Notes under the pieces: generated by a model
Told to the model about the DNA's origin: nothing
The model's database searches: none
The model's input: only the letters and a program-made list of their open reading frames with translations
Shown here: one piece after another, positions 36,697-52,839 of the stretch
How positions within the stretch are numbered: position 1 is the first letter of the stretch
Layout: every line of letters begins with the position of its first letter
Program-made: the position numbers and the translations under genes
Origin: Halobaculum sp. MBLA0143
GTDB taxonomy: Archaea; Halobacteriota; Halobacteria; Halobacteriales; Haloferacaceae
Direction: 5' to 3'
Length of the DNA stretch: 64,000 bases
Assembly (NCBI RefSeq): GCF_041361465.1
Contig: NZ_JBGKAC010000002.1
Span: 124,001 to 188,000 of the forward strand

Positions 36697-37086
36697 TCAC
36701 CCGTCACAGACGAGGACGGGCCGGTCGGTGCCGAGCACGACCTCCTGGGTCGTGCTGCCGAACAACGCCTTGCCGGTCGGACTCCGCTTGCGGCCGGCGA
36801 CGACGATCTGGTCGGCGTCGTGGCTGTCGGCGACGTTGAGAATCGCGGTCGCTGGGTCGCCGCCGTACCCCTCTGCCTGGACGTCGAACCCGGCGTCTTG
36901 GAGTCGTTCGCGGGCCTCTCGAACCGGCTTGACCTGTTCGACGGTCCCGCCGGCGCTGTTCTCTTGGAAGGCGTGGAGCAGGACGACGGAAACCGACTCG
37001 GCGGCGAGCGGGAGCTCTGTGATCGTCTCCGCCTGCCGCCGTGCCCGGTCGGCGTCCGTGTCTACCCCGACGACGAACGTGTACAT
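36697..37086 (-). CDS. Universal stress protein (UspA family)
   Basis: A 129-residue protein with the UspA fold. The N-terminus is MYTFVVGVDTDADRARRQ, and the ATP-binding loop near the C-terminus is VVAGRKRSPTGKALFGSTTQEVV, the G-2X-G-9X-G(S/T) motif, followed by DRPVLV. It therefore belongs to the nucleotide-binding Usp class. The start at 37086 is fixed by the conserved first strand. It is divergent from the substrate-binding protein at 37206, with about 120 bp containing both promoters. Confidence 0.9.
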   Translation of the reverse strand: MYTFVVGVDTDADRARRQAETITELPLAAESVSVVLLHAFQENSAGGTVEQVKPVREARERLQDAGFDVQAEGYGGDPATAILNVADSHDADQIVVAGRKRSPTGKALFGSTTQEVVLGTDRPVLVCDG

Positions 37087-37205
37087 AGACACCGTCACAC
37101 ACACCCCGTACTTCAGTGTTCCGGGGGACCGTAACTCTCGTACGAAACGGAGTGAATGCATCGGAAACAATTATGTCAGTTGTGAACTACCCACAAGGGA
37201 GAGCC

Positions 37206-38453
37206 ATGACAGACACAGGTGACAGACGTCAGACGCGACGACGACAGTTCCTTCGTGGAGTTGCAGTCGGTGGGACGGGGCTCGCAGTCGCAGGCTGTAC
37301 TGGCGGCGGCGGCGGTGGTGACGGTGGCGCAGTGACGGTACCGGGACTGTACGACGAGTCCGGCGGCACGTCCGACGTGGGGCGACCGACGGCGCTCGGG
37401 TCCCGAGACACCATCAAGTACCTCAACGAGAACGACGTGTTGGACCGGGAGATCGACCACCCGAACGAGGACTACGCGTACGAGGTGCCTCAGGCACAGC
37501 AACTGTATCAACAGTACACGTCCGGGTCGGAGCCCCCGATGATGATCGGCTGGGGGACGGCCGACACGGAAGCGCTGTCGGGATCGGTCGCGGAAGACGA
37601 GATCGTCTACGTGTCGGCGTCGTACTCGGCGAACCTCCTGACGGAGGAGGCGCCGTACAACTTCTTCGGGAACCTGGACTACACGAGTCAGGCGCGGTCA
37701 CACCTGAAGTGGATCGCCGACAACGACGGCGGTGCCACGGTCGCGTTCATCTTCTCGAACACCCCGTTCGGAGAGTCGCCCGTCGAGGGGGGCAAGCAGT
37801 ACGCCGAGGAGTTGGGCCTAGACGTCGCGCCGGACATCAACCTCCCGCTGACGGCCAACTCCGCGACGACACAGCTCCGCCAGGCGAAGGAGGCGAACGT
37901 CGACTACCTGATCCACCAGAACACGTCGGCACCGATGCGCGTGCTGCTCCAGGACCGCCAGAGCGTCTACCCGGAGGTGACCGTCTGTGGGCTGACCTAC
38001 ACCGTCGACGAGCGGGTGGTCTCGGAGTCGCCGGAACTGTTCGAGGGGACCAGGTACGTCAACGCCTTCCGAACGTTCCAGGGAGCGTTGGACGCCGGCG
38101 GGCGCGGTGCGGAGATCATCGAGGCCAACTTCGAACGCGAGGGTCGCAGCATGGACGACCCGGAGGTCGCACAGCTCAACTACGTTCGTGGGGTGATCCA
38201 CGCGTTGCTCGTCGCCCGCGGGATGGAGAACGTCATCGAGGCAGGCAACGACCCGACGAGCGGCTCGGACGCCCGACAGGCGATGTTCGAGATCGAAGAC
38301 GACAACATGGGCGACCTGTCGCAGCCGTACACGTTCGTGGAGGGTGACCGTCGGCCGACGATGACCGGCCGGATCTTCGAGGTGACTGACGGCGAGTTGG
38401 CGTTCGACACGACCGTCGAACTGCCCCGTCGGGAGGACTGGATCGGACTGTGA
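37206..38453 (+). CDS. ABC transporter substrate-binding lipoprotein (branched-chain amino acid type)
   Basis: A 415-residue exported receptor. A twin-arginine motif (RRRQFLRG) is followed by a lipobox LAVAGCTGG; the Cys would be lipidated and anchor the protein outside the membrane. The mature part matches the periplasmic-binding type I fold (FIFSNTPFGESPVEGGKQYAEELG). It is followed without gap by LivF-like and other transporter genes, so it captures their substrate. The ATG at 37206 follows a gggagag ribosome-binding-like stretch; an A/T-rich element (caattatgtcag) at ~37169-37180 is the likely promoter. The linked acyl-CoA ligase suggests a carboxylic acid ligand rather than an amino acid. 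Confidence 0.9.
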   Translation: MTDTGDRRQTRRRQFLRGVAVGGTGLAVAGCTGGGGGGDGGAVTVPGLYDESGGTSDVGRPTALGSRDTIKYLNENDVLDREIDHPNEDYAYEVPQAQQLYQQYTSGSEPPMMIGWGTADTEALSGSVAEDEIVYVSASYSANLLTEEAPYNFFGNLDYTSQARSHLKWIADNDGGATVAFIFSNTPFGESPVEGGKQYAEELGLDVAPDINLPLTANSATTQLRQAKEANVDYLIHQNTSAPMRVLLQDRQSVYPEVTVCGLTYTVDERVVSESPELFEGTRYVNAFRTFQGALDAGGRGAEIIEANFEREGRSMDDPEVAQLNYVRGVIHALLVARGMENVIEAGNDPTSGSDARQAMFEIEDDNMGDLSQPYTFVEGDRRPTMTGRIFEVTDGELAFDTTVELPRREDWIGL

Positions 38454-39304
38454 CGACGAATCAGCGGTCCACCGGGGCGGACACGGTGGACGCAGAGACG
38501 GCAGCCGACCAGCCGGTCGTCGAACTGGACAACGTCGAGATCGTCTACGACCGCCACTTCCTGGCGGTCCAGGGGGTCTCGATGACGGTCGACGAAGGCG
38601 ACATCGTCGCCTTACTCGGACCGAACGGCGCCGGCAAGTCGACGATCCTGAAGATGATCTCCGGAATCGGTCGGTCGGAACGCGGCGAGGTGACCCGCGG
38701 GAGCGTCCACTACCGCGGCGAGGAGACGACCAACGCCGGAGCGACGGCGATGGTCGACCGCGACGTGACCCACATCCTCGAGGGTCGTCGGGTGTTCGAG
38801 GACCTCACCGTCGAGGAGAACCTCCGGTGTGGGCTCTACAGGGAGGGTCGACGGCTCCAGTTCGACGAGTCCGACTACGAGATCGCGTTCGACTACTTCC
38901 CACAGTTGGAGGAGATTCTCGACCTGAAGGCGGGCTACGCCAGCGGCGGGCAACAACAGATGCTCGTCGTCGCGCGGGCGCTGATCCACCGGCCGGACCT
39001 GTTGTTGTTGGACGAGCCGTCGCTGGGGCTGGCACCGAAGCTCGTGCAGGACATCTTCGAGACGCTCGTCGAGATCAACCGCGAGGAGGAGATCACGATG
39101 ATCGTCGCCGACCAGAACGCCAAGCGAACGCTCGAGGTCGCCGACTACGGGTACGTGATGGAGAACGGTCAGGTCGAACTCCACGACCCGGCCGACGAGC
39201 TCGTCGAGCGCGAGGAGATCAAGGAGTTCTACCTCGGCACCTCCGGCGACGACTCCCGATACACGGACGTACGACACTACAAGATCAGAAAGCGGTGGAC
39301 CTGA
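38450..39304 (+). CDS. livF: ABC transporter ATP-binding protein, LivF type
   Basis: A 284-residue ATPase overlapping the binding-protein stop by 4 bp (GTGA), so translation is coupled. Walker A is LLGPNGAGKST, signature YASGGQQQML, Walker B LLLLDEPSLGLAP, and the subfamily hallmark VADQNAKRTLEVADYGYVMENG is intact. LivF pairs with LivG to power uptake through LivH and LivM. The C-terminus extends ~25 residues beyond typical LivF (DDSRYTDVRHYKIRKRW), a tail I recall only for LivF proteins in acyl-CoA-ligase-linked clusters. Confidence 0.9.
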   Translation: MTTNQRSTGADTVDAETAADQPVVELDNVEIVYDRHFLAVQGVSMTVDEGDIVALLGPNGAGKSTILKMISGIGRSERGEVTRGSVHYRGEETTNAGATAMVDRDVTHILEGRRVFEDLTVEENLRCGLYREGRRLQFDESDYEIAFDYFPQLEEILDLKAGYASGGQQQMLVVARALIHRPDLLLLDEPSLGLAPKLVQDIFETLVEINREEEITMIVADQNAKRTLEVADYGYVMENGQVELHDPADELVEREEIKEFYLGTSGDDSRYTDVRHYKIRKRWT

Positions 39305-39408
39305 TGCAGGACGTACACACACACGCACACGACCGGACAGACCAGACGACCACGGCGACGCGGCTCGGCGTCGAGACACCGGCAGGTGTGCCGGGGGGAC
39401 AGCCGTGA
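39304..39408 (+). CDS. Possible 34-residue linking ORF between livF and livG
   Basis: An ATG at 39304 overlaps the LivF stop by one base (TGATG), and its TGA at 39406 overlaps the GTG of LivG (GTGA). The peptide starts MQDVHTHAHDRTDQ and is His/Thr-rich with no known domain. The exact fit between two genes suggests translational coupling, but peptide function is unproven. A similar ORF lies between livH and livM. Confidence 0.35.
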   Translation: MQDVHTHAHDRTDQTTTATRLGVETPAGVPGGQP

Positions 39409-40271
39409 GCACGGACGGCGGGCCGGAGGCCGAGGCGACCGGCGCACGGACGAACGGCTCGGCCACGGCTGCGCGGCTCCGCGAAGGGCCGGCGGTACCG
39501 CCGGAGGAGGCGGCGATCGGCTGTCGTGACACGACGAAGACGTTCGGGTCGATCACGGCCGTCGACGACGTGAACATCGGGATCGACCACGGGGAGTGGG
39601 TGTCTATCGTCGGGCCGAACGGCGCCGGCAAGACCACACTCCTGAACGTGCTCAACGGCTTCTACGACCCCGACCCCGGCGCACGGGTGTACGTCGACGG
39701 CCAGGACCTGACGGACACTCCGGAACACGAGCGTGCTCGTGCCGGCGTCGGCCGGACGTTCCAGGGGTTGGAGCTGTTCGAGACGGAGACGGTGTTGGAG
39801 AACGTCACGACGATCCGAGCGGTGGCGCAGTCGCCGTCGCTGGCGGCGGCGCTGACGTTCTACGGGAGCGGTCGCCAGACGGAAGCGGACAACGTCCGAC
39901 GGGCCGAGGAGATCATCGACTACCTCGAACTGTGGGAGTACCGTCACACCCCGGTGTCGACGCTGCCGCTGGGCGTCCAACGGCGCGTCGACCTGGCGCG
40001 GGCGCTGGCGCTGGAGCCGTCCGTCCTCCTGTTGGACGAGGCGATGAGCGGCCTGACGTTCGACGAGAAGTACGACATCATCCGGTTCCTGACGGACCTC
40101 CACGAGGAAGAGGAGCTGACGCTCGTGATGATCGAACACGACCTGGAGGTGGTGACGGCCGTCTCCGACCGGATGATCGTGATCCAGAAGGGCGGGGTGT
40201 TGGCGCGTGGGCCGCCGGAGGCCGTCACCGACGACCCGGACGTGGCTCGGGTGTACACGGGGGTGGACTGA
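39405..40271 (+). CDS. livG: ABC transporter ATP-binding protein, LivG type
   Basis: A 288-residue ATPase. Walker A is VGPNGAGKTT; Walker B is LLLDEAMSGLTF. The signature is LPLGVQRRVDLARAL rather than the LPYGQQRR of amino acid transporters. From memory, LPxGVQKRVEL with a DEPMAGM-type Walker B is typical of LivG proteins encoded beside long-chain acyl-CoA synthetases, so this is a subfamily trait rather than a defect. The first ~40 residues are a Gly/Ala/Glu-rich extension. It begins with GTG, and the ligase gene starts 1 bp after its stop. Confidence 0.88.
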   Translation: MSTDGGPEAEATGARTNGSATAARLREGPAVPPEEAAIGCRDTTKTFGSITAVDDVNIGIDHGEWVSIVGPNGAGKTTLLNVLNGFYDPDPGARVYVDGQDLTDTPEHERARAGVGRTFQGLELFETETVLENVTTIRAVAQSPSLAAALTFYGSGRQTEADNVRRAEEIIDYLELWEYRHTPVSTLPLGVQRRVDLARALALEPSVLLLDEAMSGLTFDEKYDIIRFLTDLHEEEELTLVMIEHDLEVVTAVSDRMIVIQKGGVLARGPPEAVTDDPDVARVYTGVD

Positions 40272-40272
40272 C

Positions 40273-42393
40273 GTGGCGGCGAACGACGCCGACGACGACG
40301 TGGTGTCACAGACGGCGGCCGGCGAGACGAGCGTCGACGACGACGGACGACACGACGGCGACTCGCTGACGGTGGAGTCCGTGCTGTCGGCACCACGCGA
40401 CGAGTCGGTCGAGGTGGTCACCGACCGTGTCCTGCCGGAGATTCTGGTCGAACACGCCGACGACCACCCGGACGACGTGGCGATGCGTCGCAAGGAGTTC
40501 GGGATCTGGCAGGAGTACACCTGGGGGGAGTACTACGACACGGTGGAGGCGTTCGCGCTCGGGCTCGAGACGTTCGGGTTCGGCACGGACGACATCGTCT
40601 TCACCATCGGCTACAACCGTCCGGAACAGCTCTGGACCTGGCTCGCGGCCCAGTCGCTGGGCGGGATGGCCGCACCGAACTACGAGGACATGCTGCCGGA
40701 AGACATCCGGAAGCAGTTGGAGCTGTTGGAGCCGCGGGTCGTGTACGCCGGCGATCAGGAGATGGTGGACAAGATCCTCCGCGTCGCCGACAGCGTACCG
40801 TCTGTCGAGACGATCGTCTACGAGGACGACAAGGGGATGTTCCGGTACGAGAACGGCGAGCGGACGGCGCCGGGCGACCCGGAGATCGTCGCGTTCGAGG
40901 ACGTGGCCGACCGTGGTCGGGCGCGGCTGGCCGACGACGAGGTGTCGAGCGACCACCTCCGCGACCGGATCGCCGAGTTGGACGCCGACCGGACGGCGAT
41001 GCTCGCGCCCACCTCCGGGACGACGGGGATGCCGAAGCGGGTACAGCTGTCGCACTTCAACTTCGTCAACCTCGCGGAGGCGACGATGGACATCGACCCG
41101 TTGCCGGCGGGCTCGGACTACGTGTCGTACCTCCCGATGGCGTGGGTGGGCGAGCAGATGATCCTGTTGGCGGCCGCGTTCGTCGGGGGCTGGACGGTCA
41201 ACTTCCCAGAGGAGCCGGAGACCGAGGCGGAAGACCTCCGCGAGATCGGTCCGGAGATCATCTTCTCGTCGCCCAACCGCTACGAGGGGTGGGTCGCCGA
41301 GGTGAAGGCGAAGATCGAGAACACCACACCGTTGAAGCGTCGCGTGTACGACCTCGCCATGGACATCGGCGAGCGGTTCGCCGACTACGCCGTCGGCGAC
41401 CGCGACGGCGACCCGCCGTTGTGGCTCCGGGCGGCCCACCGTGCCGCCTACTGGACGGTGTACCGCCCCGTGTTGGACGATCTCGGGCTCAAGCGCGCGA
41501 AGAACGTCTACACAGGGGGTGGGCCGTTGGGTGAAGACCACTTCGAGTTCTACCACGCGATGGGGGTGTCGCTGAAACAGATCTGGGGGCAGTCGGAGGT
41601 GTGTGGCTTCGTCACGATGCACCGCGAGGACGACGTGGACGTCGAGACCGTCGGCGAGGTGTTCCCGAACGTGGAGGTGGGGATCACGCCCGGCGGGGAA
41701 CTGCTCGTGCGTGGACCGGTCGTCACGTCCGGCTACTACGGCATGCCCGAGAAGACGGAGGAGGCGATGGAGGACGGCTGGCTCCACACGGACGACTTCG
41801 GCGAACTCACCGACGACGGCCACGTCGTCGTGTTCGACCGGATGGACGACGTGTTGGAGCTGACCGACGGCACCGCGGTCGCGCCGATCAGCGTCGAGAC
41901 GAAGCTGAAGTTCGACCCGTACGTCAAGGAGGCGATGGTGGTCGGCGACGGCCGCGACGAGCTCGCGGCCGTGCTCAACCTCCGGTACGACAACGTCGCG
42001 GAGTGGGCCGACCAACGCGACATCCAGTACACGGGCTACCACGACCTCACCCAGAAGCCGCCCGTGTTGGAGCTGTTGCGGCAGGTCGTCGCCGACACCA
42101 ACGCCGAACTGGACCACCCGGTCGAACGGTTCGTCGTCCTGTTCAAACAGTTCGACGCCGACGACGGTGAGCTCACCCGCACCGGCAAGCTCCGACGGGA
42201 GGTGGTCGTCGAACGGTACGACGACCTCGTCGAAGGGTTGTTCGACGGCAGCGACGAGATCGACCTGGACGTGACTGTCACCTACCAGGACGGTCGAGAG
42301 TCGACGGAGCGAGGGACCATCCGCGTCGTCGACGCCGACCGACCAGTCGAACGCGGCGACGGTGTCGTCGACGCGGAGGTAAGGGGTGAGTAG
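40273..42393 (+). CDS. Long-chain acyl-CoA ligase-like AMP-dependent synthetase
   Basis: A 706-residue adenylate-forming enzyme that would convert an imported carboxylic acid, ATP and CoA to acyl-CoA. The phosphate-binding motif is APTSGTTGMPKRV; further core motifs are KNVYTGGGPLGED, IWGQSEVCGF and DGWLHTDDFGEL; the C-terminal catalytic Lys is likely in TRTGKLRREVV. This is the FAA1-like large-ligase group. Its position between livG and livH, with almost no spacing, indicates that activation is tied to transport. An acidic N-terminal extension of ~40 residues precedes the domain. GTG start at 40273. Confidence 0.9.
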   Translation: MAANDADDDVVSQTAAGETSVDDDGRHDGDSLTVESVLSAPRDESVEVVTDRVLPEILVEHADDHPDDVAMRRKEFGIWQEYTWGEYYDTVEAFALGLETFGFGTDDIVFTIGYNRPEQLWTWLAAQSLGGMAAPNYEDMLPEDIRKQLELLEPRVVYAGDQEMVDKILRVADSVPSVETIVYEDDKGMFRYENGERTAPGDPEIVAFEDVADRGRARLADDEVSSDHLRDRIAELDADRTAMLAPTSGTTGMPKRVQLSHFNFVNLAEATMDIDPLPAGSDYVSYLPMAWVGEQMILLAAAFVGGWTVNFPEEPETEAEDLREIGPEIIFSSPNRYEGWVAEVKAKIENTTPLKRRVYDLAMDIGERFADYAVGDRDGDPPLWLRAAHRAAYWTVYRPVLDDLGLKRAKNVYTGGGPLGEDHFEFYHAMGVSLKQIWGQSEVCGFVTMHREDDVDVETVGEVFPNVEVGITPGGELLVRGPVVTSGYYGMPEKTEEAMEDGWLHTDDFGELTDDGHVVVFDRMDDVLELTDGTAVAPISVETKLKFDPYVKEAMVVGDGRDELAAVLNLRYDNVAEWADQRDIQYTGYHDLTQKPPVLELLRQVVADTNAELDHPVERFVVLFKQFDADDGELTRTGKLRREVVVERYDDLVEGLFDGSDEIDLDVTVTYQDGRESTERGTIRVVDADRPVERGDGVVDAEVRGE

Positions 42394-43347
42394 ATGTCGG
42401 AGCTGAGTACGTTCTTCGACATCGCCGTCTCCGGGGTCGGGCTGGGGGCGTTGTACGCACTCGTCGCCATGGGCTTCTCGCTCATCTACAAGGTGACGGG
42501 GGTGCTCAACTTCGCTCAGGGACAGATCGCGATGGTGGGCGCCTACAGCGTCGTGATCTTCGGCACCACGTCGTTGCTGCCGACGGCGCTGCCGGCGGCA
42601 GCGGCGCTCGGCGTCACCATCCTCGTCGGGCTCCTCTTGGGGCTCGCGTTAGAACGGGTCGTGTTCCGACCGTTCATCGGCGAGCCGGTGTTGTCGATCA
42701 TCATCGTCACGCTGGCGCTGGGGTCGATCCTGGAGGGGTCGATCGCGTTCCTGTTCGGTCGGAACTTCAAGGCGTACCCGAGTGCGCTCACGGTCGACTG
42801 GAGCGTGTCGCTCCCGCTCGGCGCCTCGATCCAGGGAGCGTACGCCATGGCGGTCGTCGCGGCGCTGGCGGTCGTGGGACTACTGATCGCCTTCTTCAAG
42901 CGGTCCGTCGTCGGGTCGATCCTCCGGGCGTCTGCCAGCGACGAGCAGGCGGCGATGGCGCTGGGTGTCTCGATCGAACGGACGGTCGCGCTCGCGTGGA
43001 CGATCTCGATCACGATCACCGCAATCGGCGGGATTCTGCTGGCGGTGTCCAGCGGCGGTGCGGCGTTCTCCATCGAGACGACCGGGATCATCATCTTCGC
43101 GGCCGTCGTGTTCGGCGGACTCGACAGTATCCTCGGGGCGTTCGTCGGCTCGATCGTCGTCGGACTGCTCCAGGAGCTCGGCTCCTACTACCTGGAGGGT
43201 GGCACCGCGGTGTTCCTCCCGGGTACTGGTATCCAGGCGAACCTCGGCGCCGGCTTCGGCGAGATTCTCCCCATGCTGTTCCTGCTGGCGGTGATCGTCG
43301 TGAAGCCGTACGGACTGTTCGGCACCGAACGTATCGAGAGGCTCTGA
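42394..43347 (+). CDS. livH: ABC transporter permease, LivH type
   Basis: A 317-residue permease with about eight to nine membrane helices. Family motifs are GLGALYALVAMGFSLIYKVTGVLNFAQGQIAM at the N-terminus, and RSVVGSILRASASDEQAAMALGVSIER, the loop that contacts the ATPase. It starts directly at the first base after the ligase stop. LivH and LivM together form the channel. Confidence 0.95.
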   Translation: MSELSTFFDIAVSGVGLGALYALVAMGFSLIYKVTGVLNFAQGQIAMVGAYSVVIFGTTSLLPTALPAAAALGVTILVGLLLGLALERVVFRPFIGEPVLSIIIVTLALGSILEGSIAFLFGRNFKAYPSALTVDWSVSLPLGASIQGAYAMAVVAALAVVGLLIAFFKRSVVGSILRASASDEQAAMALGVSIERTVALAWTISITITAIGGILLAVSSGGAAFSIETTGIIIFAAVVFGGLDSILGAFVGSIVVGLLQELGSYYLEGGTAVFLPGTGIQANLGAGFGEILPMLFLLAVIVVKPYGLFGTERIERL

Positions 43348-43349
43348 GG

Positions 43350-43490
43350 ATGAGACAGACACCACACACACCACCGACACGACACACACTCGCAGAGACA
43401 CGCCCGAGACGCACCGCCGACGACCGGACAGCGACGACGGAGTCTCGCGGCCGAACACGCTGGGACGGAGGGAGCCGTGCCCTGCGGTGA
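43350..43490 (+). CDS. Possible 46-residue linking ORF between livH and livM
   Basis: An ATG two bases after the LivH stop opens a 46-codon frame starting MRQTPHTPPTRHTLAE, Arg/Thr-rich, that ends 14 bases inside livM. As with the ORF at 39304, it is basic, low in complexity and without recognised domain. It could be real coupling or just a long spacer. Confidence 0.3.
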   Translation: MRQTPHTPPTRHTLAETRPRRTADDRTATTESRGRTRWDGGSRALR

Positions 43491-44523
43491 GTACTTCACC
43501 GACTACGAGTCCCGGATGGGGCTGTTCCGGTGGCGTATCCAACGGATCGCGCTCGTCGCCGGGCTGCCGATCCCGTTCCTCGTGCCGCTCCTGGCCGAGG
43601 GAGGGACGCTCACGCTGCTGTCACAGGCGTACATCTTCGCCGTCGCGGTGCTGGGACTGAACGTGATCTTGGGGTACGCGGGGGAGATCGTCCTCGCACA
43701 GGGGGCGTTCATGGCCATCGGCGCGTACACGACCAGCCGGATCGTGACGACCGGTGTCGGGCTGTTGCCGGCGTTGGCAGCCGGTGGGGCGGTGGCGGCG
43801 ACCGTCGCCGTTGGCTTCGGACTCCCCTCCTTCCGAGTGAAGGGGTTCTACATCGCCATCTCCACGCTCGCGCTCCAGTTCGTCTCCGAGTGGTTCTTCA
43901 ACAACGGCCAGGCGGCCTGGATCCACGGCGGCTCACAACAGCAGTTGCCGTCGTCCGTCGGGCTCGTCGGCCCGTTCCTGGAGGTCTCCGGGACGAACGC
44001 GAAGTACTACCTCGCGCTCGTCGCGATGCTCGTGTTCGCGTTGTTGTCGTTGAACCTCTCCCGGACGGGAATCGGCAAGACCCTGCGTGCGATCCACGAG
44101 AACGACCTCTCGGCGGCGGTGCTGGGCGTGGACGTGTTCCGGAACAAGCTCGTCGCGTTCGCGCTTGGCGGGTTCGCCGTCGGCGTCGCCGGCGGGCTGT
44201 ACGGCTACCAGATCGGCTTCATCTCGCCCGGTTACTTCACGCTGAGCCTGACGCTGGAACACTACGTGATGCTGTTGTTCGGCGGGCTCGGCTACGTCTG
44301 GGGGGCGTTGCTGGGCGTCGGTGTCGTCACCGTCGTCCAGGAGTACCTCCGGCAGATCCTGGGTGTCGCCGCAGACCTGACCGGGCTCAACGCCACCGCG
44401 ACCGTCCCGGTGTTCTTCGGTAGCATCATCATCGTCGTGTTGGCGGTGGAGCCCCGGGGCGTCCTCGCCGCGCTCGGGAAGGTGAAAGAGTACCTCCAGC
44501 AGTGGCCGTTCGCGTACGACTGA
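43477..44523 (+). CDS. livM: ABC transporter permease, LivM type
   Basis: A 348-residue permease with about ten helices and the LivM signature: NVILGYAGEIVLAQGAFMAIGAYTTSR and the cytoplasmic loop GIGKTLRAIHENDLSAAVLGVDVFRNKLVAFALGGFAVGVAGGLYG. The GTG at 43477 is used; an internal ATG at 43516 (MGLFRWRIQR) is also possible and would remove the overlap with the small ORF. It completes the transporter. A TATA-like ggttttatg after it indicates that the next gene can be transcribed separately. Confidence 0.93.
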   Translation: MPCGEYFTDYESRMGLFRWRIQRIALVAGLPIPFLVPLLAEGGTLTLLSQAYIFAVAVLGLNVILGYAGEIVLAQGAFMAIGAYTTSRIVTTGVGLLPALAAGGAVAATVAVGFGLPSFRVKGFYIAISTLALQFVSEWFFNNGQAAWIHGGSQQQLPSSVGLVGPFLEVSGTNAKYYLALVAMLVFALLSLNLSRTGIGKTLRAIHENDLSAAVLGVDVFRNKLVAFALGGFAVGVAGGLYGYQIGFISPGYFTLSLTLEHYVMLLFGGLGYVWGALLGVGVVTVVQEYLRQILGVAADLTGLNATATVPVFFGSIIIVVLAVEPRGVLAALGKVKEYLQQWPFAYD

Positions 44524-44586
44524 CCGACGCCGTCCGGTCGGCGCCGGCCCCCGGTTTTATGCCGTCTGCAAACCCCACGAAAGACG

Positions 44587-45750
44587 ATGTACGACACGGA
44601 GACACTGACGGCGCTCCGGGAACAGCTCGCGGCAGTCGCAGACCACGACCTCTACCGCGACCGGTTCGCCGACGCGGGTGTACAGCCCGCCGACGTCGAG
44701 ACCTGGGCGGCGTTCGAGTCGGTTCCGTTCACGACCGCCGAGGACCTGGTCGACGACTTCGAGGCCGACCCGCCGACGGGGTCGACGTACGACGGCGCGG
44801 CGATGGTGACGTTCTCGCCGATGGGTGACGGGCTCCGGCCCGTGATCGACACGACGGGAGACATCGGCCACCAGGCGGAGGCGAACGCGGAGGTGCTGCG
44901 ACGGGCGGGTGTCGCCCCGGACGACCGGGTCGCCGTCACCTTCGGCTACGACCTGTTCGGGACGGGGTACGTGTTCCACCGGGCCTTGGAGGAACTCGGC
45001 GCGGAGGTGTTCCCGCTCGGGCCCGGTGACTCCGAGCAGACGGCGGCGACGATCCAGCAGTTCGACCTCGACGGACTCGTCGGGAACCCGAGCTTCGCGC
45101 TGAAGCTCGGGGAGGCAGGTGCGCGCGTCGACACGTTCCTCGGCGCCGGCGAGCCGTTCACCTCCGTTCCCGGTCGCCGCGCGGCGGTGAAAAACGCCTT
45201 AGACGCGACGACGGCCGTCGATTACTTCGGCACCCGGCACGCGATGCCAGTCGCGGCCGAGACGGCGGCCGAAGACGGGTTGGTGGTGTGTTCCGACTAC
45301 GCCGTCGTGGAGATCGTCGATCCGGACACGGGTGAGCGACTGGAGCCGGGTGAGCGCGGTGAACTCGTCGTCACACACACCGCCAAGGAGGGGGTGCCGT
45401 TGGTTCGGTACCGCACGGGTGACCTCGCAGACCTGGCGGTCCGAGACGGCACCGTCGTCCTCCCGGACGGGGTCGTCGGCCGGACGGACGAACGCCTGAA
45501 GGTGAAGGGGGTGAAGCTGTACCCCGAGAGCGTCGAGACGGTACTCGCGGGGTTCGACGATCTCACCGGAGAGTACCGGGTGACGGTATCACGGCCGGAG
45601 ACGACCGACCGTCTCGAAGTGGTCTGTGAGGGGGACGCGGACACGGACCGACTGCGGGCGGCACTGAGCGACCGACTGCTCGTCGCCCCCGACGGGGTGC
45701 GGACGGTCGCGGAGCTGGACGAGCCAGGTGTCGTCGACGACCGGGTGTAG
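44587..45750 (+). CDS. PaaK-like phenylacetate-CoA ligase family protein
   Basis: A 387-residue adenylate-forming enzyme of the phenylacetate-CoA ligase (PaaK/CapK) type, shorter than PaaK (about 430). It has the N-terminal helix pair (LREQLAAVADHDLYRDRFADAGV), core strand GYDLFGTGYVFHRALEELGAEVFP and C-terminal LVRYRTGDLADLAVRDG...GRTDERLKVKGVKLYP, where Lys and Asp carry out adenylation. The usual Ser/Thr/Gly-rich loop is weak here (MVTFSPMGDGL), so substrate preference or activity may be altered. Its 3' end lies in a triplicated 37-bp repeat. Confidence 0.8.
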   Translation: MYDTETLTALREQLAAVADHDLYRDRFADAGVQPADVETWAAFESVPFTTAEDLVDDFEADPPTGSTYDGAAMVTFSPMGDGLRPVIDTTGDIGHQAEANAEVLRRAGVAPDDRVAVTFGYDLFGTGYVFHRALEELGAEVFPLGPGDSEQTAATIQQFDLDGLVGNPSFALKLGEAGARVDTFLGAGEPFTSVPGRRAAVKNALDATTAVDYFGTRHAMPVAAETAAEDGLVVCSDYAVVEIVDPDTGERLEPGERGELVVTHTAKEGVPLVRYRTGDLADLAVRDGTVVLPDGVVGRTDERLKVKGVKLYPESVETVLAGFDDLTGEYRVTVSRPETTDRLEVVCEGDADTDRLRAALSDRLLVAPDGVRTVAELDEPGVVDDRV

Positions 45751-45856
45751 CGACGGCTGGTCGCGGTCAGTCGACGAACAGATGTAGCGACGGGTGGCCG
45801 CGGTCAGTCGACGACCGGGTGTAGCGACGGGTGGCCGCGGTCAGTCGACGAGTCGG
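45746..45856 (+). repeat. 37-bp tandem repeat, three copies, spanning two convergent gene ends
   Basis: The unit begins tgtagcgacgggtggccgcg and continues gtcagtcgacga. Copies lie at 45746-45782, 45783-45819 and 45820-45856. The TAG of the ligase is in copy 1 and the TGA (minus strand) of the thioesterase is in copy 3. Every copy contains both potential stops. Confidence 0.92.
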
Positions 45857-46287
45857 TAGACGCCGGTGCCGGTAGCACACACCGTGTCGTCTGCGACCAC
45901 CTCGACGCGAGCGACACCAGTGCTGGTGCCGGCGCGCTCCACCGTCGCGGTCGCCGACAGCGGTGCCCGCGGGGCCGCCTCGAGGTAGTTCACCCGCAGG
46001 TCGACTGTCGGCGTGTACGCCCCACACAGTCCGACGAACACGGCCGCGCCCGTGAGGTCGACGGTCGTGCTGAGGGCACCGCCGTGCAGCACCCCCCGGT
46101 CCGGGTCGCCGACCAACTCCTCTCGGAACGGGACCGTCACGACCGCACGCTCCTCGGTGACCTCCTCGACGTGCACGTCCAACGCACGGTGGAGTGGGAG
46201 GCGTTCGTACAGCCGACGCACCGTCTCCGTGCGGGTCTCCGTGTCGTCGTCGGCGTTGGCCTCACCGTCGCCGTGAGTGTCTGTCAC
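45841..46287 (-). CDS. PaaI-like acyl-CoA thioesterase (hotdog fold)
   Basis: A 148-residue hotdog-fold thioesterase. The active-site helix is GVLHGGALSTTVDLTGA, with a Asp and Thr in the expected places; strands LRVNYLEAAPRAPLSATATV and ARVEVVADDTVCATGTGVY complete the fold. It would hydrolyse aryl- or acyl-CoA, releasing CoA trapped in dead-end esters. It is convergent with the PaaK-like ligase and fits a regulating or rescue role for this uptake cluster. A disordered acidic N-terminus of ~20 residues is present. Confidence 0.88.
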   Translation of the reverse strand: MTDTHGDGEANADDDTETRTETVRRLYERLPLHRALDVHVEEVTEERAVVTVPFREELVGDPDRGVLHGGALSTTVDLTGAAVFVGLCGAYTPTVDLRVNYLEAAPRAPLSATATVERAGTSTGVARVEVVADDTVCATGTGVYRLVD

Positions 46288-46331
46288 ACGTCGTCACACA
46301 CCGACCAGGCGTGTAAAGCTCCGGGCGAACG

Positions 46332-47195
46332 CTACCGTCCGAGGAACCGTTCGGCGGCACCCCGAAACAGTTGTGTGGTCGCCTCCGTCGACAGCGACCG
46401 CGAGAGGAGGTGCCGTCGCTCGTCGGCGTACGAGTGTGGGACGTTCGGGTAGTCCGAACCGTACACGATCTGCCCCGCCAGCTCCTCGAACACCGCGTCC
46501 GGCACGTCGTCGGGCTCGTAGTCGACGCCGACGGCCGCAGCGGCGTCGGCCGCGGTCGGCGAGCAGGCGAACGCCGTGTCGAGGAAGACGGTGTCGTGGT
46601 CTCGGGCCAACTCGACGAACGCCGGCCAGTCGTACGTCCCGAGGTGGGCACACAGGACCCGCAGCTCCGGGTGCCGCTCGACGACACGCTCGAACGCCTC
46701 GACGCCGACGTGTGGAGAGTCGAGCGACGCCGGGGCGGTTCCGGCGTGGAACAACGCCGGCCGACCACGCTCGGCGGCGGCCGCGAGCGCTCCCTCGATT
46801 CGGGGGTCCGCCGGGCCGAACCCCTGAACCGGACACTGGATCTTCAGCCCACGCGCTCCGGCGTCGAACGCCGCCTGGACGGTCGCTCGGGGGTCGGCGT
46901 CGCCGGCGTGGAGGGTTGCGAACGGAACTGCCCGGTCGGACGCCGCCGCAGTGTCGAGCACCCACTCGTTCAGCTCTCGTGCCACGCCCGGCCTGTGTGC
47001 GTACGGCAACACGACGTACTCCGCGACGCCCGCCTCCCGGAGCACCGCCTCGACTCCCTCGCGGTCGGCCGGGTGTGGGAACTCCCACCCCATCGACTCA
47101 GACAGCGACGTTCTGATCGCCCGCATCAGCCGCGGCGGCATCAGGTGTGTGTGGCAGTCGATCGCACCGACGAACGGTGACTGTGACTCTGGCAC
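46332..47195 (-). CDS. Amidohydrolase-2 family hydrolase/decarboxylase
   Basis: A 287-residue TIM-barrel metal-dependent protein of the ACMSD/amidohydrolase-2 group. It has the metal motif DCHTHLMPPR near the N-terminus, a mid-barrel His in LFHAGTAP, another in CAHLGTYDWPAF, and the catalytic Asp in IVYGSDYPN. Reactions include decarboxylation or hydrolysis of ring-cleavage products. Its location after a CoA ligase and thioesterase fits aromatic or carboxylic acid breakdown, by inference only. The start is set at the GTG at 47195 (VPESQSPFVGAID); a GTG at 47210 is also possible. Confidence 0.85.
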   Translation of the reverse strand: MPESQSPFVGAIDCHTHLMPPRLMRAIRTSLSESMGWEFPHPADREGVEAVLREAGVAEYVVLPYAHRPGVARELNEWVLDTAAASDRAVPFATLHAGDADPRATVQAAFDAGARGLKIQCPVQGFGPADPRIEGALAAAAERGRPALFHAGTAPASLDSPHVGVEAFERVVERHPELRVLCAHLGTYDWPAFVELARDHDTVFLDTAFACSPTAADAAAAVGVDYEPDDVPDAVFEELAGQIVYGSDYPNVPHSYADERRHLLSRSLSTEATTQLFRGAAERFLGR

Positions 47196-47237
47196 GTAAT
47201 TCGATACCACACCACACGGAAAGGCTCTGTCGGTCAC

Positions 47238-47385
47238 TGTCGTCCGGATCGGCGGACGACCGTCACCGTCGTCGAGGTGCGCCAGACGACTGTCACCGTC
47301 GTCCAAGTACGTCGGACGACCATCACAGTCGTCCGGATCGGCAGACGACCGTCACCGTCGTCGAGGCACGGCGGACGGCCCTCTC
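47238..47385 (+). repeat. About 30-bp imperfect tandem repeat, five copies
   Basis: Imperfect units of 29-30 bp built on cgtcgtc, a variable middle, then gacgaccgtcac. The copies differ at several positions, so it is older than the 25- and 27-bp arrays. It lies just upstream of the amidohydrolase start and of the first origin-box cluster. Confidence 0.8.
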
Positions 47386-47471
47386 GGCGACGCTGCCGAG
47401 CAACACCCGGGAGACGCGGTCGCGGCCGTGGCTCCCAGGACCTCGCGGCAGTGTGGGCTCTTACACGGGGT

Positions 47472-47663
47472 ATTTCATTTCGCACACGGGGGGAAGAGTG
47501 GGTGTCGTCCGTGCTCACGTCCAGATTTCATTTCGCACACGGGGGGAGGAGTGGGTGTCGTTCGTACTCACGTCCAGATTTCATTTCGCACACGGGGTGT
47601 GGGGTGCCGACTCGACGGAGGTGTGAGACCGAACGCGGGGGCTTTTCATTTCGCACACGGGGG
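47472..47663 (+). promoter_or_regulatory. Origin-box-like repeat cluster A (four copies)
   Basis: Four direct copies of TTTCATTTCGCACACGGGG at 47472-47493, 47525-47546, 47578-47597 and 47643-47663. The first three are 53 bp apart and their spacers are alike (gtgggtgtcgt ... ctcacgtccag), so the actual repeat is a 53-bp unit. A degenerate half copy (ttacacgggg) is just upstream at ~47461. They end in a run of four to six G. Interpreted as Orc1/Cdc6 binding boxes from their repetition around the orc gene. Confidence 0.7.
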
Positions 47664-47666
47664 ATT

Positions 47667-48060
47667 CGAGGGTACCTATCGGCACAACGACGTTGCCCAC
47701 CGACGGGAGTGGTCGCCTTGACGGTGATGGGCGGCAGTCTCTCGGTCTGCGTGGGCACGACCACGGACGCCCGTGCGTTGTCGTCGGGGAGCTCGACGAC
47801 CCACTCGGCGCCCGCGGGTACTTGACGGAACGTACTGGAGTCGTCGACTCCGTCACGGTCTCCACAGTCGTCAGCCAACCCGGAGACCGCACGGATCGCC
47901 GTCGCCACCGACGGCGCGAACGACGACAGTTGGGTCGTCTCGGCCGAACGACCCAGTTCGTCGGCGTCGGCCACGTCGGCGACCCCGAGCGCGTACGGGT
48001 GGGCCGGACGGTCTGTGTCGTCTCGAAGTCCACTTGCTCGACTTCGAACACGTGGGTCAC
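47667..48060 (-). pseudogene. Frameshifted remnant of an unknown gene
   Basis: On the minus strand a GTG at 48060 opens a plausible start (THVFEVEQVDFETTQTVRP); after ~20 codons the coding signal passes to another frame: HPYALGVADVADADELG, continuing to AEWVVELPDDNARASVVVP and ERLPPITVKATTP. Codon choice in both parts is clearly haloarchaeal. The end then seems to change frame again (VGNVVVPIGTLESP) and runs into an origin box without a proper stop. It is probably a decayed gene; sequencing error could account for one shift. Function unknown. Confidence 0.4.
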
Positions 48061-48215
48061 GCCGGCGACACTCCAGGATGCCGCCCCGAGGGCACTCTGA
48101 AGGGAGCGCCTCCTCTTCGTTCCGTTCGTTTCTGGTGGTTCGATTTGGACTCAAATGGTTCTGCTCCGATCTGGTGTCGAGTAGTTCTGCTATCCGGTGT
48201 CTACTGCCGATCCAG

Positions 48216-48310
48216 TGTCGTGTCCGGTTCGTGAGAGCAGTGTCGTGTCCGGTTCGTGAGAGCAGTGTCGTGTCCGGTTCGTGAGAGCAGTGTCGTGTCC
48301 GGTTCGTGAG
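48216..48310 (+). repeat. 25-bp tandem repeat, nearly four copies
   Basis: The unit tgtcgtgtccggttcgtgag plus agcag occurs at 48216, 48241 and 48266, with a partial copy to 48310. The three full copies are identical, so the expansion is recent. No coding role is seen. The stretch 48061-48402 otherwise holds no gene. Confidence 0.95.
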
Positions 48311-48402
48311 ATGACCGATGGAGAGTTCGAACCCAGGAGGGAGACCGAGACAGTATCGGCGTCGTCTCACCACTGGGATTAGGTGGGACGAGATCGCGGT
48401 AC

Positions 48403-48750
48403 ATGGCTCTTGACTTCGGAGTCAAGACCTCCGATTCGCTGCACGCGAGTCTTCGAACGGCGATCGAACGGACCCTCGCGCTGGAATCGTGGGTTCCCCG
48501 TTCCCGTAGGCGGGTCGCCTCGGGAACGTTCGTTCGCCGCCACACACAGTTCGACTCGGCCGAAGAGTTCTGTACGGCCTGTCCGTGCGACGAGGATACG
48601 ATCGGCGGCGTTCAACGACTCTCGGCCGAACAGCGAGACGCGTTCGTCGCGCGGACGACTGACTTCGACGAGTGGACAGAGATGAAGCGGGCCGCAGCGA
48701 CCGAGGATCTCGTGACGCTGCAGAACGTACGATCACGTCGGTCCGAGTAG
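48403..48750 (+). CDS. Uncharacterised small protein with a Cys cluster
   Basis: A 115-residue acidic/basic mixed protein starting MALDFGVKTSDSLHASLRTA. It contains FCTACPCDEDT, a CxxCxC pattern that could bind a metal or form disulfides, then LSAEQRDAFVARTTDFDEW. Codon usage is compatible with a real gene. No family is recognised. Its last 18 bp overlap the convergent phosphate transporter gene. Its position beside the origin does not show any function in replication. Confidence 0.6.
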   Translation: MALDFGVKTSDSLHASLRTAIERTLALESWVPRSRRRVASGTFVRRHTQFDSAEEFCTACPCDEDTIGGVQRLSAEQRDAFVARTTDFDEWTEMKRAAATEDLVTLQNVRSRRSE

Positions 48751-49941
48751 CGCAGCGAGTATGTGGTAGAGTGTGAAGCTGATCACGCCACCACCGACCA
48801 TCGAGGCGACCCACGCTCCGATCGTGTACCCCGTCTTCGTGGCCGACACCCCGTCGGAACTCGACGAACCGCCGACCAACCCGGCTCCGACGATACTAGA
48901 GATCATCACCTTGTTGAACGAGATGGGATAGCCGAGAACGATCGCGGCCTGCGCGACGAGAAACGCGGGGACGAACGCGGCGATCGATCGCTTGGGGCCG
49001 AGCGAGGCGTACTCACGGGCCACTGCCTGAATGAGACGCGGCGACCGGACCCAGCCACCGAGGAGAATGCCGAGCCCCCCGAGCCCGAGCAAGTACAGTG
49101 AGGGTAGACCGAGCGACGACTCGAAGACGGATTCTAGTGGTCCGGTGGCGAGGCCCACCTGCGAGCCGCCGCTGGTGAACACGACGACGAGGGCGAGCGC
49201 GATCAACATCCTGTTGATCCCGGTCGTCACGTCACGCCGGAGTTGCCAGTAGACCGTGGCCGCGACGAGAACTCCGATCGCGCCCCCGACGAGGACGACT
49301 CCGGCCTCGCCACCCCCTGTCGACGCGACATCGAGCCGGCGAGTGACGACGCCCGCGATCGACCCGTAGTCGTTCTGCGGGGCTGGGAGGAACGAGAGCT
49401 GGATGTTGGCGAGTGCGTAGCCGACACCGCCGGCGAGGAGTGGGACGCTCAGTGTGTCCGAGACTGTGTCGTCCAGCAACAGCCACGCGAGACCGTACGC
49501 CAGGACACCCTCGACGACGGGGATGGCGAACCAGAAGCCCAGGATCCTGGCGTAGGTCGCAACCGCGAAGCCACCGCCGAGAGCGACACCCGCACCGACC
49601 GCAGCGCCGGTGACGGTGAACGCCGAGGGGATCGGATAGCCACGAGAGTTCCCGATGGTGATGAGCGTCGCTGCCGTGAGGAGCGTCGCAGTGGCGGCCA
49701 ATGGGGTGATCGTCACGCCGGTCACCAGTCCGTGGCCGATGGTCTCTGAGATGCTGCCACCTTGTGCGATAGCCCCGAGGGCGGCGACGACACCGACCAG
49801 CAGCGCCCCTCGTAAGGTCGACAGCGCGTTCGCCCCGACGGCTGGCGCCATCGGAGCAGAGTTGCTGTTTGCTCCGACGGTGAAGGACATGAACAGCGAT
49901 GCGACCAGCGCGACGACGACGACGCCGAGTGCTGAGAACAT
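48733..49941 (-). CDS. PiT-family inorganic phosphate transporter
   Basis: A 402-residue membrane protein with about eleven helices. The two PiT signature repeats are GANSNSAPMAPAVGANALSTLRGALLVG near the N-terminus and FLVAQAAIVLGYPISFNKVMISSIVGAGL near the C-terminus; the Asn and Pro/Ser positions match the family, though the usual GANDVANA core is altered. It would take up phosphate (or a related anion) with a cation. The start at 49941 (MFSALGVVVV) is preferred, since the extra upstream 15 residues are Arg-rich and cross an A/T-rich promoter. Confidence 0.87.
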   Translation of the reverse strand: MFSALGVVVVALVASLFMSFTVGANSNSAPMAPAVGANALSTLRGALLVGVVAALGAIAQGGSISETIGHGLVTGVTITPLAATATLLTAATLITIGNSRGYPIPSAFTVTGAAVGAGVALGGGFAVATYARILGFWFAIPVVEGVLAYGLAWLLLDDTVSDTLSVPLLAGGVGYALANIQLSFLPAPQNDYGSIAGVVTRRLDVASTGGGEAGVVLVGGAIGVLVAATVYWQLRRDVTTGINRMLIALALVVVFTSGGSQVGLATGPLESVFESSLGLPSLYLLGLGGLGILLGGWVRSPRLIQAVAREYASLGPKRSIAAFVPAFLVAQAAIVLGYPISFNKVMISSIVGAGLVGGSSSSDGVSATKTGYTIGAWVASMVGGGVISFTLYHILAALLGPT

Positions 49942-50454
49942 ATATCGATTCAGAATGAACCCTACTCGTCGACGCGATTCTGGCACGCCACACTCTCCAA
50001 CAGATACGTATGATTCTGTCGGTAGCGTTCGTCTGTATCCCGGTGTGCGTCCGTCCTGCCGCGTACATCTGTATCTCGGTGTTCACCGTACCCGCGTCTC
50101 CAGTGTGTGTATCTGTGTTCCCCGTCGAGAGAAGGTAGCCGTGGCTGCGGAGGCGTTCCTCGTCGTGGTGTCGATTGTCTCGCTCGAGTTCGTCCTCGCC
50201 CGGCACGGGTAGTCTCGACTTGCGGTCGTCGTGAGCACGTGACACGGCTCGCGGCGTGGGCAGCGAGAGCGGGCCCGACGTCGGGACTCTCGGGGGGCAC
50301 ACACCAGATTTCCGGAGAGTGAGCCGGCTGCCGGTCCTCGGACACCAGACACAGCCTCACGATACTCCGTCGGAGAACTGTGCGATCACGGAACTCGTCC
50401 GAGGCGATCACCGCGAGAGCCAGGCAGTCGTGGCGCGACGTGAGAACGCTCGGG
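49942..50454. other. Intergenic region between phosphate transporter and origin boxes
   Basis: About 510 bp with no convincing gene. It contains weak near-repeats of ctgtatc-cggtgt (50030-50110) and a short hydrophobic frame on the plus strand (AEAFLVVVSIVSLEFVLARHG, ending 50212) without an evident start. It probably includes the promoter of the phosphate transporter. Confidence 0.4.
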
Positions 50455-50594
50455 ATTTCATTTCGCACACGGGGGGTAGACGGGGGACGACACGGCGGCG
50501 GTCACCGGTGAAGCCGGCCGCACACGTCCGAAAAGAGGCGTCGAGGGAGTCGGTGGAGGCCCGCAACCCCCTCCCCCCGTGTGCGAAATGAAAT
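50455..50594. promoter_or_regulatory. Origin-box-like pair B in opposite orientation
   Basis: One plus-strand copy at 50455-50476 (ATTTCATTTCGCACACGGGG) and one minus-strand copy at 50573-50594, with their G-strings facing each other 96 bp apart. The minus copy is the only inverted one in the window and lies immediately left of the A+T-rich stretch, which makes this the most origin-like segment. Confidence 0.72.
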
Positions 50595-50649
50595 CGGGCA
50601 GAGGGAGGGGGGTGGGGTAGAGCGGCGGATGCGGCCGCTGAGGGCGGCA

Positions 50650-50775
50650 AGTGGAAATTAGACCCGTATCAGGTGCTAAAAGACGAATTTCTACGATTAG
50701 GGAAAAGAAACTATTGTCACACGAACCTTTTTCACTTAGGTTGTTCAAAAGTGTCCGTAGTACCTAGATTTTGAC
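50650..50775. other. A+T-rich candidate DNA unwinding element
   Basis: A stretch including gtggaaattagac, gctaaaagacgaatttctac, ggaaaagaaactattg and cctttttcacttaggttg is far richer in A+T than anything around it and has no reading frame. It lies between the inverted box at 50573-50594 and the direct boxes at 51092-51221, whose G-strings point away from it. Haloarchaeal origins usually have an unwinding element flanked by inverted boxes, and this fits. The same stretch could also carry a promoter. Confidence 0.65.
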
Positions 50776-50919
50776 GCAGACACGGGGCGCGGGGACGTGT
50801 CTGCGTCAACTTCGTCGCTCCTTCTCCGAGCGGTGTTCCAGTTCCGTGACTTCCGCCTAGTAGTCGTCCGCGTTCCGTGGCCTCTGCACCGATCGCCCAT
50901 TCACTGACCGTACGTGTAG

Positions 50920-51000
50920 TGTTCGACCGGTCTACTGCACTGTTCGGCCGGTCTACTGTACTGTTCGGCCGGTCTACTGTACTGTTCGGCCCGTTTATCA
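50920..51000 (+). repeat. 21-bp tandem repeat, three full copies and part of a fourth
   Basis: The unit tgttcggccggtctactgta plus c occurs at 50920 (with small changes), 50941 and 50962, then a partial copy to ~50992. It contains the short palindrome ggccgg. It lies between the A+T-rich stretch and box cluster C, in iteron-like fashion. Confidence 0.92.
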
Positions 51001-51091
51001 GACGAGTACGACACGATCACGGGAGAGAACGGCTGTTCACAAACCAGTCTGTTCGGCTTCTCCTGGTCCCCCCTCCCCCCGCTCACGACGG

Positions 51092-52818: not shown

Positions 52819-52839
52819 ACCGACCGGTGACTCCGGATG

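What the first reader, a model, noticed from the sequence alone, without database searches (positions are those of the whole stretch)
37206..47195. Uptake operon with built-in acyl-CoA ligase, second ligase and thioesterase
Binding protein, LivF, LivG, ligase, LivH, LivM are nearly without gaps and are followed by a PaaK-like ligase, PaaI-like thioesterase and an amidohydrolase. LivG has the LPxGVQ signature that I recall from acyl-CoA-synthetase-linked systems of bacteria. This points to import of an aromatic or fatty acid with immediate CoA trapping, and a likely transfer from bacteria to haloarchaea.
Basis: partly seen in the sequence, partly recalled or inferred. Interest (0 to 1): 0.6.

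Follow-up and report, generated by a model that had tools for sequence, protein, structure and literature searches.

The report
Acid importer with built-in CoA trap
A salt-loving archaeon carries a gene cluster that probably pulls an organic acid into the cell and at once tags it with coenzyme A; the cluster is a conserved package shared with other archaea and with bacteria, and it comes with an odd enzyme look-alike that seems to have lost its active site.

Summary
The operon is real: SBP-LivF-LivG-acyl-CoA ligase-LivH-LivM plus a PaaK-like gene on the + strand; PaaI-like thioesterase and amidohydrolase lie convergently on the - strand. It sits on a 589-kb second replicon. The six genes recur in the same order in 11 of 14 named haloarchaeal loci (the other 3 are cut by contig ends); the ligase occurs in 20 of 391 Halobacteria genomes. 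LivG and ligase trees group them with ligase-linked bacterial cassettes, away from ordinary Liv transporters. Best reading: an importer of a carboxylic acid, probably aliphatic, trapped as CoA thioester; neighbours elsewhere (acyl-CoA dehydrogenase, acyl-CoA carboxylase, MaoC, CoA-transferase, CoA lyase) fit. Substrate unproven. Two corrections. (1) The 'second ligase' lacks the ATP P-loop in all 25 cassette-linked copies examined, and in haloarchaea also the A5 Glu and A10 Lys, yet occurs in exactly the same 20 genomes as the ligase: a conserved pseudo-ligase. (2) Nearest relatives are not bacterial: archaea of another family of the same phylum (probably Archaeoglobi) carry the whole cassette, three of five loci read with the haloarchaeal order; direct bacterial transfer is not shown. 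No paper describing the cassette appeared in ten library searches.

The parts
37206..38453 (+). substrate-binding protein, Peripla_BP_6, Tat signal and lipobox
   Evidence: orthologues 54-81% in named haloarchaeal loci; nearest solved structures 3eaf and 3lkb
38450..39304 (+). LivF-type ATPase
   Evidence: 77-89% in named haloarchaeal loci
39405..40271 (+). LivG-type ATPase with LPLGVQRRVDLARAL signature
   Evidence: trees
40273..42393 (+). acyl-CoA ligase (AMP-forming) with intact motifs PTSGTTGMPK, QIWGQSE, LTRTGKLRR
42394..43347 (+). LivH-type permease
43477..44523 (+). LivM-type permease
   Evidence: N-terminus resembles that of the L115 LivM
44587..45750 (+). PaaK-like protein without P-loop, A5 Glu or A10 Lys (pseudo-ligase)
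   Evidence: co-occurs with the ligase in 20 of 20 genomes
45841..46287 (-). hotdog (4HBT) thioesterase, conserved neighbour, convergent to the operon
   Evidence: present in 13 of 19 haloarchaeal loci
46332..47306 (-). Amidohydro_2 (PF04909) hydrolase or decarboxylase, conserved neighbour; start codon uncertain
   Evidence: present in 18 of 19 haloarchaeal loci
36697..37170 (-). UspA-family protein, divergent from the SBP gene, frequent neighbour; start uncertain
   Evidence: homologue in 12 of 19 haloarchaeal loci

Best explanation
The operon encodes a LIV-type ABC importer for a carboxylic acid together with the AMP-forming ligase that turns the acid into its CoA thioester as it arrives. 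SBP binds the acid outside; LivH/LivM carry it through, driven by LivF/LivG; ligase 1 traps it as acyl-CoA (metabolic trapping). The PaaK-like protein is inferred to be a non-catalytic partner (scaffold or acyl-CoA/adenylate-binding regulator) of the ligase or importer. The acyl-CoA then enters beta-oxidation-type degradation: beside the operon in several relatives, elsewhere in the genome in this organism. The thioesterase may release CoA from dead-end thioesters (inferred). Substrate most likely an aliphatic, perhaps branched or medium-chain, acid. Shown: gene content, order, motifs, co-inheritance, phylogenetic grouping. Inferred: import direction, substrate class, trapping, role of the pseudo-ligase.
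For: Operon and families. Same six-gene order in haloarchaea; ligase in 20 of 391 Halobacteria and PaaK-like orthologue in exactly the same 20. Same components in 10 of 10 bacterial plasmid loci opened out of 60 listed (ligase between LivG and LivH in 8, before LivG in 2; PaaK-like gene after LivF in 4). Ligase keeps P-loop, A5 and A10 motifs. Neighbours elsewhere: acyl-CoA dehydrogenase in 5 haloarchaeal loci read, carboxylase in 4, MaoC in 2, CoA-transferase in 2, HpcH/HpaI-type lyase; similar sets beside bacterial cassettes. The dehydrogenase beside haloarchaeal operons is 38-40% identical to those beside four bacterial cassettes, against about 28-33% for most other dehydrogenases in the loci compared; it is over-represented in operon-bearing genomes, 12 of 20 against 64 of 371. 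Literature: few of 22 Liv-type (COG0683) binding proteins of R. palustris whose annotation did not match shifted with Leu/Ile/Val; they bound other amino acids and/or aromatic, fatty or dicarboxylic acids (PMC3223731, passages).
Against: No binding, transport or ligase data. The window itself has no beta-oxidation gene next to the operon, and its genome lacks the linked dehydrogenase. The enrichment is not corrected for kinship, and that dehydrogenase is common without the operon (64 genomes). The SBP model is too poor to read the pocket (pLDDT 55). The genome also encodes PaaA/PaaC-family (phenylacetyl-CoA epoxidase) genes, so an aromatic acid is possible. The linked carboxyltransferase is closest to propionyl-CoA carboxylase, which names no substrate.
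Confidence: 0.7

Rival explanations
1. Aromatic-acid importer: the system takes up a phenylacetate-, benzoate- or cinnamate-like acid and the ligase is an aryl-CoA ligase.
For: PaaK-like and PaaI-like neighbours; own genome holds PaaA/PaaC-family genes; Liv-type importers of aromatic acids are documented in R. palustris (hbaE and RPA1789, PMC3223731).
Against: PaaK-like protein has no ligase motifs; thioesterase far below the PaaI cut-off (30.3 against 118.9); ligase best resembles fatty-acid ligases (FadD11-type, 228 bits, far below that model's cut-off of 950); neighbours of relatives are acyl-CoA dehydrogenase, carboxylase, MaoC.
Confidence: 0.2
2. The PaaK-like protein is a working second ligase that binds ATP through a replaced loop, FSPxG(D/E)xLxPV, giving a second substrate.
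For: The replacement loop is itself conserved (F76, P78, G80, L83, P85 invariant in 12 haloarchaeal proteins); the TGD and GRTD/KVKG segments are kept; f21 archaeal copies keep the A5 Glu and alphaproteobacterial copies keep GK near the C-terminus.
Against: P-loop missing in 25 of 25 cassette-linked copies; in haloarchaea A5 Glu and A10 Lys are missing as well.
Confidence: 0.15
3. Ordinary branched-chain amino acid importer with a ligase that happens to be in the operon.
For: Family-level similarity to LivF, LivG, LivH and LivM.
Against: All below the E. coli equivalog cut-offs (LivG 196 against 362, LivF 187 against 441); trees separate them from ordinary haloarchaeal and bacterial LivG; ligase kept in the cassette in all 19 haloarchaeal loci tabulated and in the bacterial and f21 loci opened, all of which were found through the ligase.
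Confidence: 0.07
4. Direct bacteria-to-haloarchaea transfer of the cassette.
For: Patchy in Halobacteria (20 of 391 genomes, 10 of 86 genera); absent from 3 of 3 same-genus genomes; haloarchaeal LivG is one clade among cassette LivGs that are mostly bacterial.
Against: Another archaeal family of the same phylum holds the full cassette with somewhat higher ligase identity (39-45% against 35-39%) and, in three loci, the haloarchaeal order; archaeal and bacterial cassettes are split at 100/100.
Confidence: 0.2

Closest known systems
Bacterial Liv-type cassettes with an AMP-binding protein inside (e.g. Deinococcus taeanensis p_TS293_2, Azospirillum sp. TSH58 p03, Paracoccus alcaliphilus p429813)
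   Same: LivG, ligase, LivH, LivM, SBP, LivF and in 4 of 10 loci opened a P-loop-less PaaK-like protein
   Different: gene order LivG-Lig-LivH-LivM-SBP-LivF or a variant instead of SBP-LivF-LivG-Lig-LivH-LivM; ligase only 35-39% identical; no experimental description found
   Same: all seven proteins including P-loop-less PaaK-like; L117-L119 have the haloarchaeal order
   Different: PaaK-like keeps the A5 Glu; no amidohydrolase or PaaI-like gene detected in the stretches read
R. palustris Liv-type importers beside CoA-ligase pathways (hbaE-I; RPA3723-3725 next to pimFABCDE)
   Same: binding proteins for aromatic, fatty or dicarboxylic acids tied to CoA activation (PMC3223731, passages)
   Different: ligase described beside, not inside, the transporter genes; homology to this cassette not tested here
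Phenylacetate-CoA ligase PaaK
   Same: fold and domain layout (top Foldseek hits BT_0428, PaaK1, PaaK2)
   Different: no P-loop, A5 Glu or A10 Lys; far below the PaaK family cut-offs
FadL/FadD fatty-acid uptake ('vectorial acylation'; recalled, no call)
   Same: uptake coupled to CoA ligation
   Different: outer-membrane channel and diffusion there, a dedicated ABC importer here

Membership tests
LIV/HAAT-type ABC importer | Peripla_BP_6 binding protein, two BPD_transp_2 permeases, two ABC_tran ATPases in one cluster | tested here: met
LIV/HAAT-type ABC importer | transport of branched-chain amino acids | not testable with these tools
   no assay; equivalog cut-offs for LivF, LivG, LivH and LivM not reached
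Ligase-linked Liv cassette | AMP-forming ligase encoded within the Liv cluster and phylogenetically grouped with other such ligases | tested here: met
Ligase-linked Liv cassette | LivG of the cassette clade | tested here: met
   cassette clade 98/97 and 99/95; it also holds Rhizobium L082, which has the order but no ligase
AMP-forming acyl-CoA ligase (ligase 1) | P-loop, A5 Glu, A10 Lys | tested here: met
PaaK phenylacetate-CoA ligase | curated family score | tested here: not met
   205 against 700 bits (NF041878), 157 against 646 (TIGR02155)
PaaK phenylacetate-CoA ligase | ATP P-loop SSGTTGKP | tested here: not met
   absent in window and 15 other haloarchaeal, 5 f21 archaeal and 4 bacterial linked copies; SSGTT present in PaaKs of Haloferax, Pseudomonas, Thermus and in a Variovorax homologue
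PaaK phenylacetate-CoA ligase | A5 Glu and A10 Lys | tested here: not met
   haloarchaeal copies read YFGTR or YFGSR and have no GK near the C-terminus
PaaI hydroxyphenylacetyl-CoA thioesterase | curated family score | tested here: not met
   30.3 against 118.9 bits (TIGR02286); general hotdog thioesterase TIGR00369 met, 64.4 against 36.6

The most novel reading that the evidence does not exclude
A P-loop-less PaaK homologue is an obligate non-adenylating subunit of a transport-coupled acyl-CoA synthetase: importer, ligase and pseudo-ligase form one membrane-bound unit that hands the acid straight to CoA, a vectorial-acylation machine shared by Halobacteria, another archaeal family and bacteria.
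Probability: 0.25. Interest if true: 0.65.

Novelty: new variant of a known kind. Interest (0 to 1): 0.45.

Why it matters
Genome annotation calls the permeases of such clusters branched-chain amino acid transporters and often the PaaK-like gene a phenylacetate-CoA ligase; both labels look wrong here. If right, it gives a dedicated, testable route for acid uptake in haloarchaea and Archaeoglobi-like archaea, and a conserved pseudo-enzyme in the ANL superfamily whose role could be tested directly.

Tried and rejected
Isovalerate/isoprenoid-acid idea: I considered that the linked carboxylase is a methylcrotonyl- or geranyl-CoA carboxylase; the carboxyltransferase of L094 is closest to propionyl-CoA carboxylase (393 bits against 285 and 239 for the best methylcrotonyl and geranyl types), so I dropped it as a claim.

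Window genes near the operon give no pathway. A structural reading of the SBP pocket failed (pLDDT 55; a profile search of solved structures gave only 3eaf, 3lkb and a weak 4ru0). The PaaK-like model (pLDDT 68.9) is below 50 over residues 49-86, where the P-loop would lie, so it cannot show what replaced it. No PaaK relative was found in the 15 kb around the own-genome PaaA/PaaC genes; the whole genome was not examined for an intact one.

The first clade test on the five-gene tree (p-AU 0.001) is void: a name match put the Dehalococcoidia row into the haloarchaeal group. The tree was regrouped; that tree uses LG+G4 without the mixture model and carries a long-branch warning for the join of L117-119 with haloarchaea. 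In the LivG tree I left out two long rows (own3, Variovorax). The AU test (p 0.205) did not reject one clade of ligase-linked LivGs without Rhizobium L082. In the Lig1 tree several forks are open and one or two rows are partial; the f21 archaea were not yet in it. In the PaaK-like loci alignment L018 is partial.

Paper searches (10 of 10 used) listed nothing that described this cassette; only titles and starts of abstracts were seen there, and passages of PMC3223731, PMC12543098 and PMC8359953 were read. PMC12543098 shows predicted ABC transporters with fitness effects on pimelate and medium-chain fatty acids; the passages do not say that a ligase lies inside them. [quoted passage not shown] fulgidus on 2-methoxyphenol; whether they are this cassette was not checked.
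Full report
WHAT IS THERE. The window is bases 124001-188000 of contig C2 (589,226 bases) of a 3.58-Mb two-contig genome. Seven genes on the + strand run SBP, LivF, LivG, acyl-CoA ligase, LivH, LivM, PaaK-like (37206-45750); a hotdog thioesterase and an Amidohydro_2 protein lie on the - strand at 45841-47306 and point toward the operon. A UspA-family gene (36697-37170, -) diverges from the SBP gene.

CONSERVATION IN HALOARCHAEA. One scan of the GTDB contigs with the ligase gave 19 loci: 14 haloarchaeal (67-75% identity) and 5 others. Of the 14, 11 have all six genes SBP-LivF-LivG-ligase-LivH-LivM in this order (in L014 and L018 some genes are split in two pieces) and 3 are cut by contig ends with the rest in order. 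In a sample of 391 Halobacteria genomes 20 carry the ligase orthologue, in 10 of 86 genera; 0 of 3 same-genus genomes in the 60-relative sample had it. The PaaK-like orthologue (60-100% identity) is in exactly those 20 genomes; five more genomes have a 43-52% relative. Over 19 haloarchaeal loci (window included) the PaaK-like gene is present in 19, the amidohydrolase in 18, the thioesterase in 13, UspA in 12. So the - strand genes are real but more loosely kept neighbours, and the PaaK-like gene is a fixed part, whatever its orientation (with the operon in some loci, against it in others).

BACTERIAL AND ARCHAEAL RELATIVES. tblastn of the ligase against plasmids hit 1,039 records, 132 with at least 80% coverage. 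I opened 10 of the 60 listed hits: all 10 have Liv genes around the ligase; the ligase lies between LivG and LivH in 8 and before LivG in 2; 4 of 10 have a PaaK-like protein after LivF. A Dehalococcoidia MAG (L020) has the ligase between LivG and LivH too. A search of 294 genomes of the same phylum found the ligase in 11: 4 Halobacteria and 7 of one other family, f21, at 39-45% identity. Five f21 loci were read: three have SBP-LivF-LivG-ligase-LivH-LivM with a PaaK-like gene upstream of the SBP gene, two have the bacterial order ending in LivF-PaaK-like. f21 is unnamed; its proteasome ATPase is closest to the solved chain 6he5, which I recall to be Archaeoglobus fulgidus (one search gives no organism), so f21 is probably Archaeoglobi.

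TREES. LivG: haloarchaeal cassette copies are one clade (100/100) inside a clade of cassette LivGs (99/95; 98/97), apart from the organism's own Liv paralogues and ordinary bacterial LivGs. That clade also contains Rhizobium johnstonii L082, which keeps the order but has no ligase. Ligase: haloarchaeal cassette ligases are one clade (100/100), apart from other haloarchaeal fatty-acid ligases. Five-gene concatenation (unrooted): bacterial and archaeal cassettes separate at 100/100; f21 loci L117-119 join the haloarchaea at 94/89. Patchy distribution within Halobacteria still suggests transfer or repeated loss.

LIGASE VERSUS PSEUDO-LIGASE. Ligase 1 keeps PTSGTTGMPK, QIWGQSE and LTRTGKLRR (that these are the P-loop, A5 and A10 motifs of the ANL superfamily is recalled). 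The PaaK-like protein does not: where PaaK has SSGTTGKP it reads FSPMGDGLRPV; the P-loop is missing in 16 of 16 haloarchaeal, 4 of 4 bacterial and 5 of 5 f21 cassette-linked copies, and in three haloarchaeal relatives outside the cassette (L074-L076), while four comparison proteins (PaaK of Haloferax, Pseudomonas and Thermus; a Variovorax homologue) keep SSGTT. Haloarchaeal copies also lack the A5 Glu and the C-terminal GK. The replacement loop is itself conserved, so the protein is under selection. Its model (pLDDT 68.9) matches PaaK-type folds. In the tree, haloarchaeal, f21 and Deinococcus copies form one clade (100/99), separate from reference PaaKs and from alphaproteobacterial linked copies, so the P-loop may have been lost once or twice.

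WHAT IT WORKS ON. In relatives the operon stands beside an acyl-CoA dehydrogenase (L010, L016, L089, L090, L094), biotin carboxylase and carboxyltransferase (L010, L016, L094, L095), MaoC (L094, L095), an HpcH/HpaI-type lyase (L015), family-III CoA-transferases (L096, L090), an SDR and enoyl-CoA hydratase (L008, L009, L091; SDR also L096). The same classes flank bacterial cassettes of Polaromonas, Nitratireductor, Sulfitobacter, Tistrella and Sagittula; Azospirillum has isobutyryl- and isovaleryl-CoA dehydrogenases; Diaphorobacter has a B12-type acyl-CoA mutase; Deinococcus, Paracoccus and Aminobacter loci show no such pathway set. The dehydrogenase beside haloarchaeal operons is 38-40% identical to one beside four bacterial cassettes, against about 28-33% for most other dehydrogenases in the compared loci; a dehydrogenase in the Haloterrigena island L074 is equally close (39%) and one in L076 is at 35%. 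It occurs in 12 of 20 operon-bearing and 64 of 371 other genomes (Fisher p 4e-5, not corrected for kinship); 7 of the 12 have it within 14 kb. Against: the window's genome lacks it, though it has six other matches to the acyl-CoA dehydrogenase family, and it has PaaA/PaaC-family genes. I read this as import and CoA trapping of an aliphatic acid, with aromatic acids as the main rival. Published binding data on R. palustris Liv-type proteins make acid import by this transporter family ordinary (PMC3223731, passages).

VERDICT. A real, conserved transport-plus-activation cassette, best called a new variant of a known kind because of the constant pseudo-ligase. Substrate, complex formation and direction of transfer are open.

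Noticed in passing
window 47234-53010: Repeat-rich stretch (27-nt tandem array at 51207-51467; 25-nt array at 48188-48311; 21-nt array at 50915-50998; eight copies of a 26-nt element around TTTCATTTCGCACACGGGG) next to a Cdc6/Orc gene (51475-53010, -): possibly the replication origin of the 589-kb replicon.
   Followed up: partly
L074 13983-15185, L075 11983-13191, L076 7971-9209: P-loop-less PaaK relatives also sit in haloarchaeal beta-oxidation islands on plasmids (Haloterrigena pHTUR01, Natronosalvus, Natrinema); the first two islands have separate Liv operons nearby.
   Followed up: partly
L082 4872-10064: Rhizobium johnstonii plasmid has a Liv cluster in cassette order without ligase, among dimethylsulfone genes, with cassette-type LivG.
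   Followed up: partly
window 4841-9961: Very large reading frame (1706 aa) combining PAS, HATPase, AAA and TPR domains.
   Followed up: no
window 60960-62369: RPE65-type carotenoid oxygenase family protein.
   Followed up: no
window 15008-17305: Peroxidase-family protein with two PF00141 stretches.
   Followed up: no
window 28708-32484: 1258-aa protein mixing lamin-tail, SNase and DUF4350 domains.
   Followed up: no
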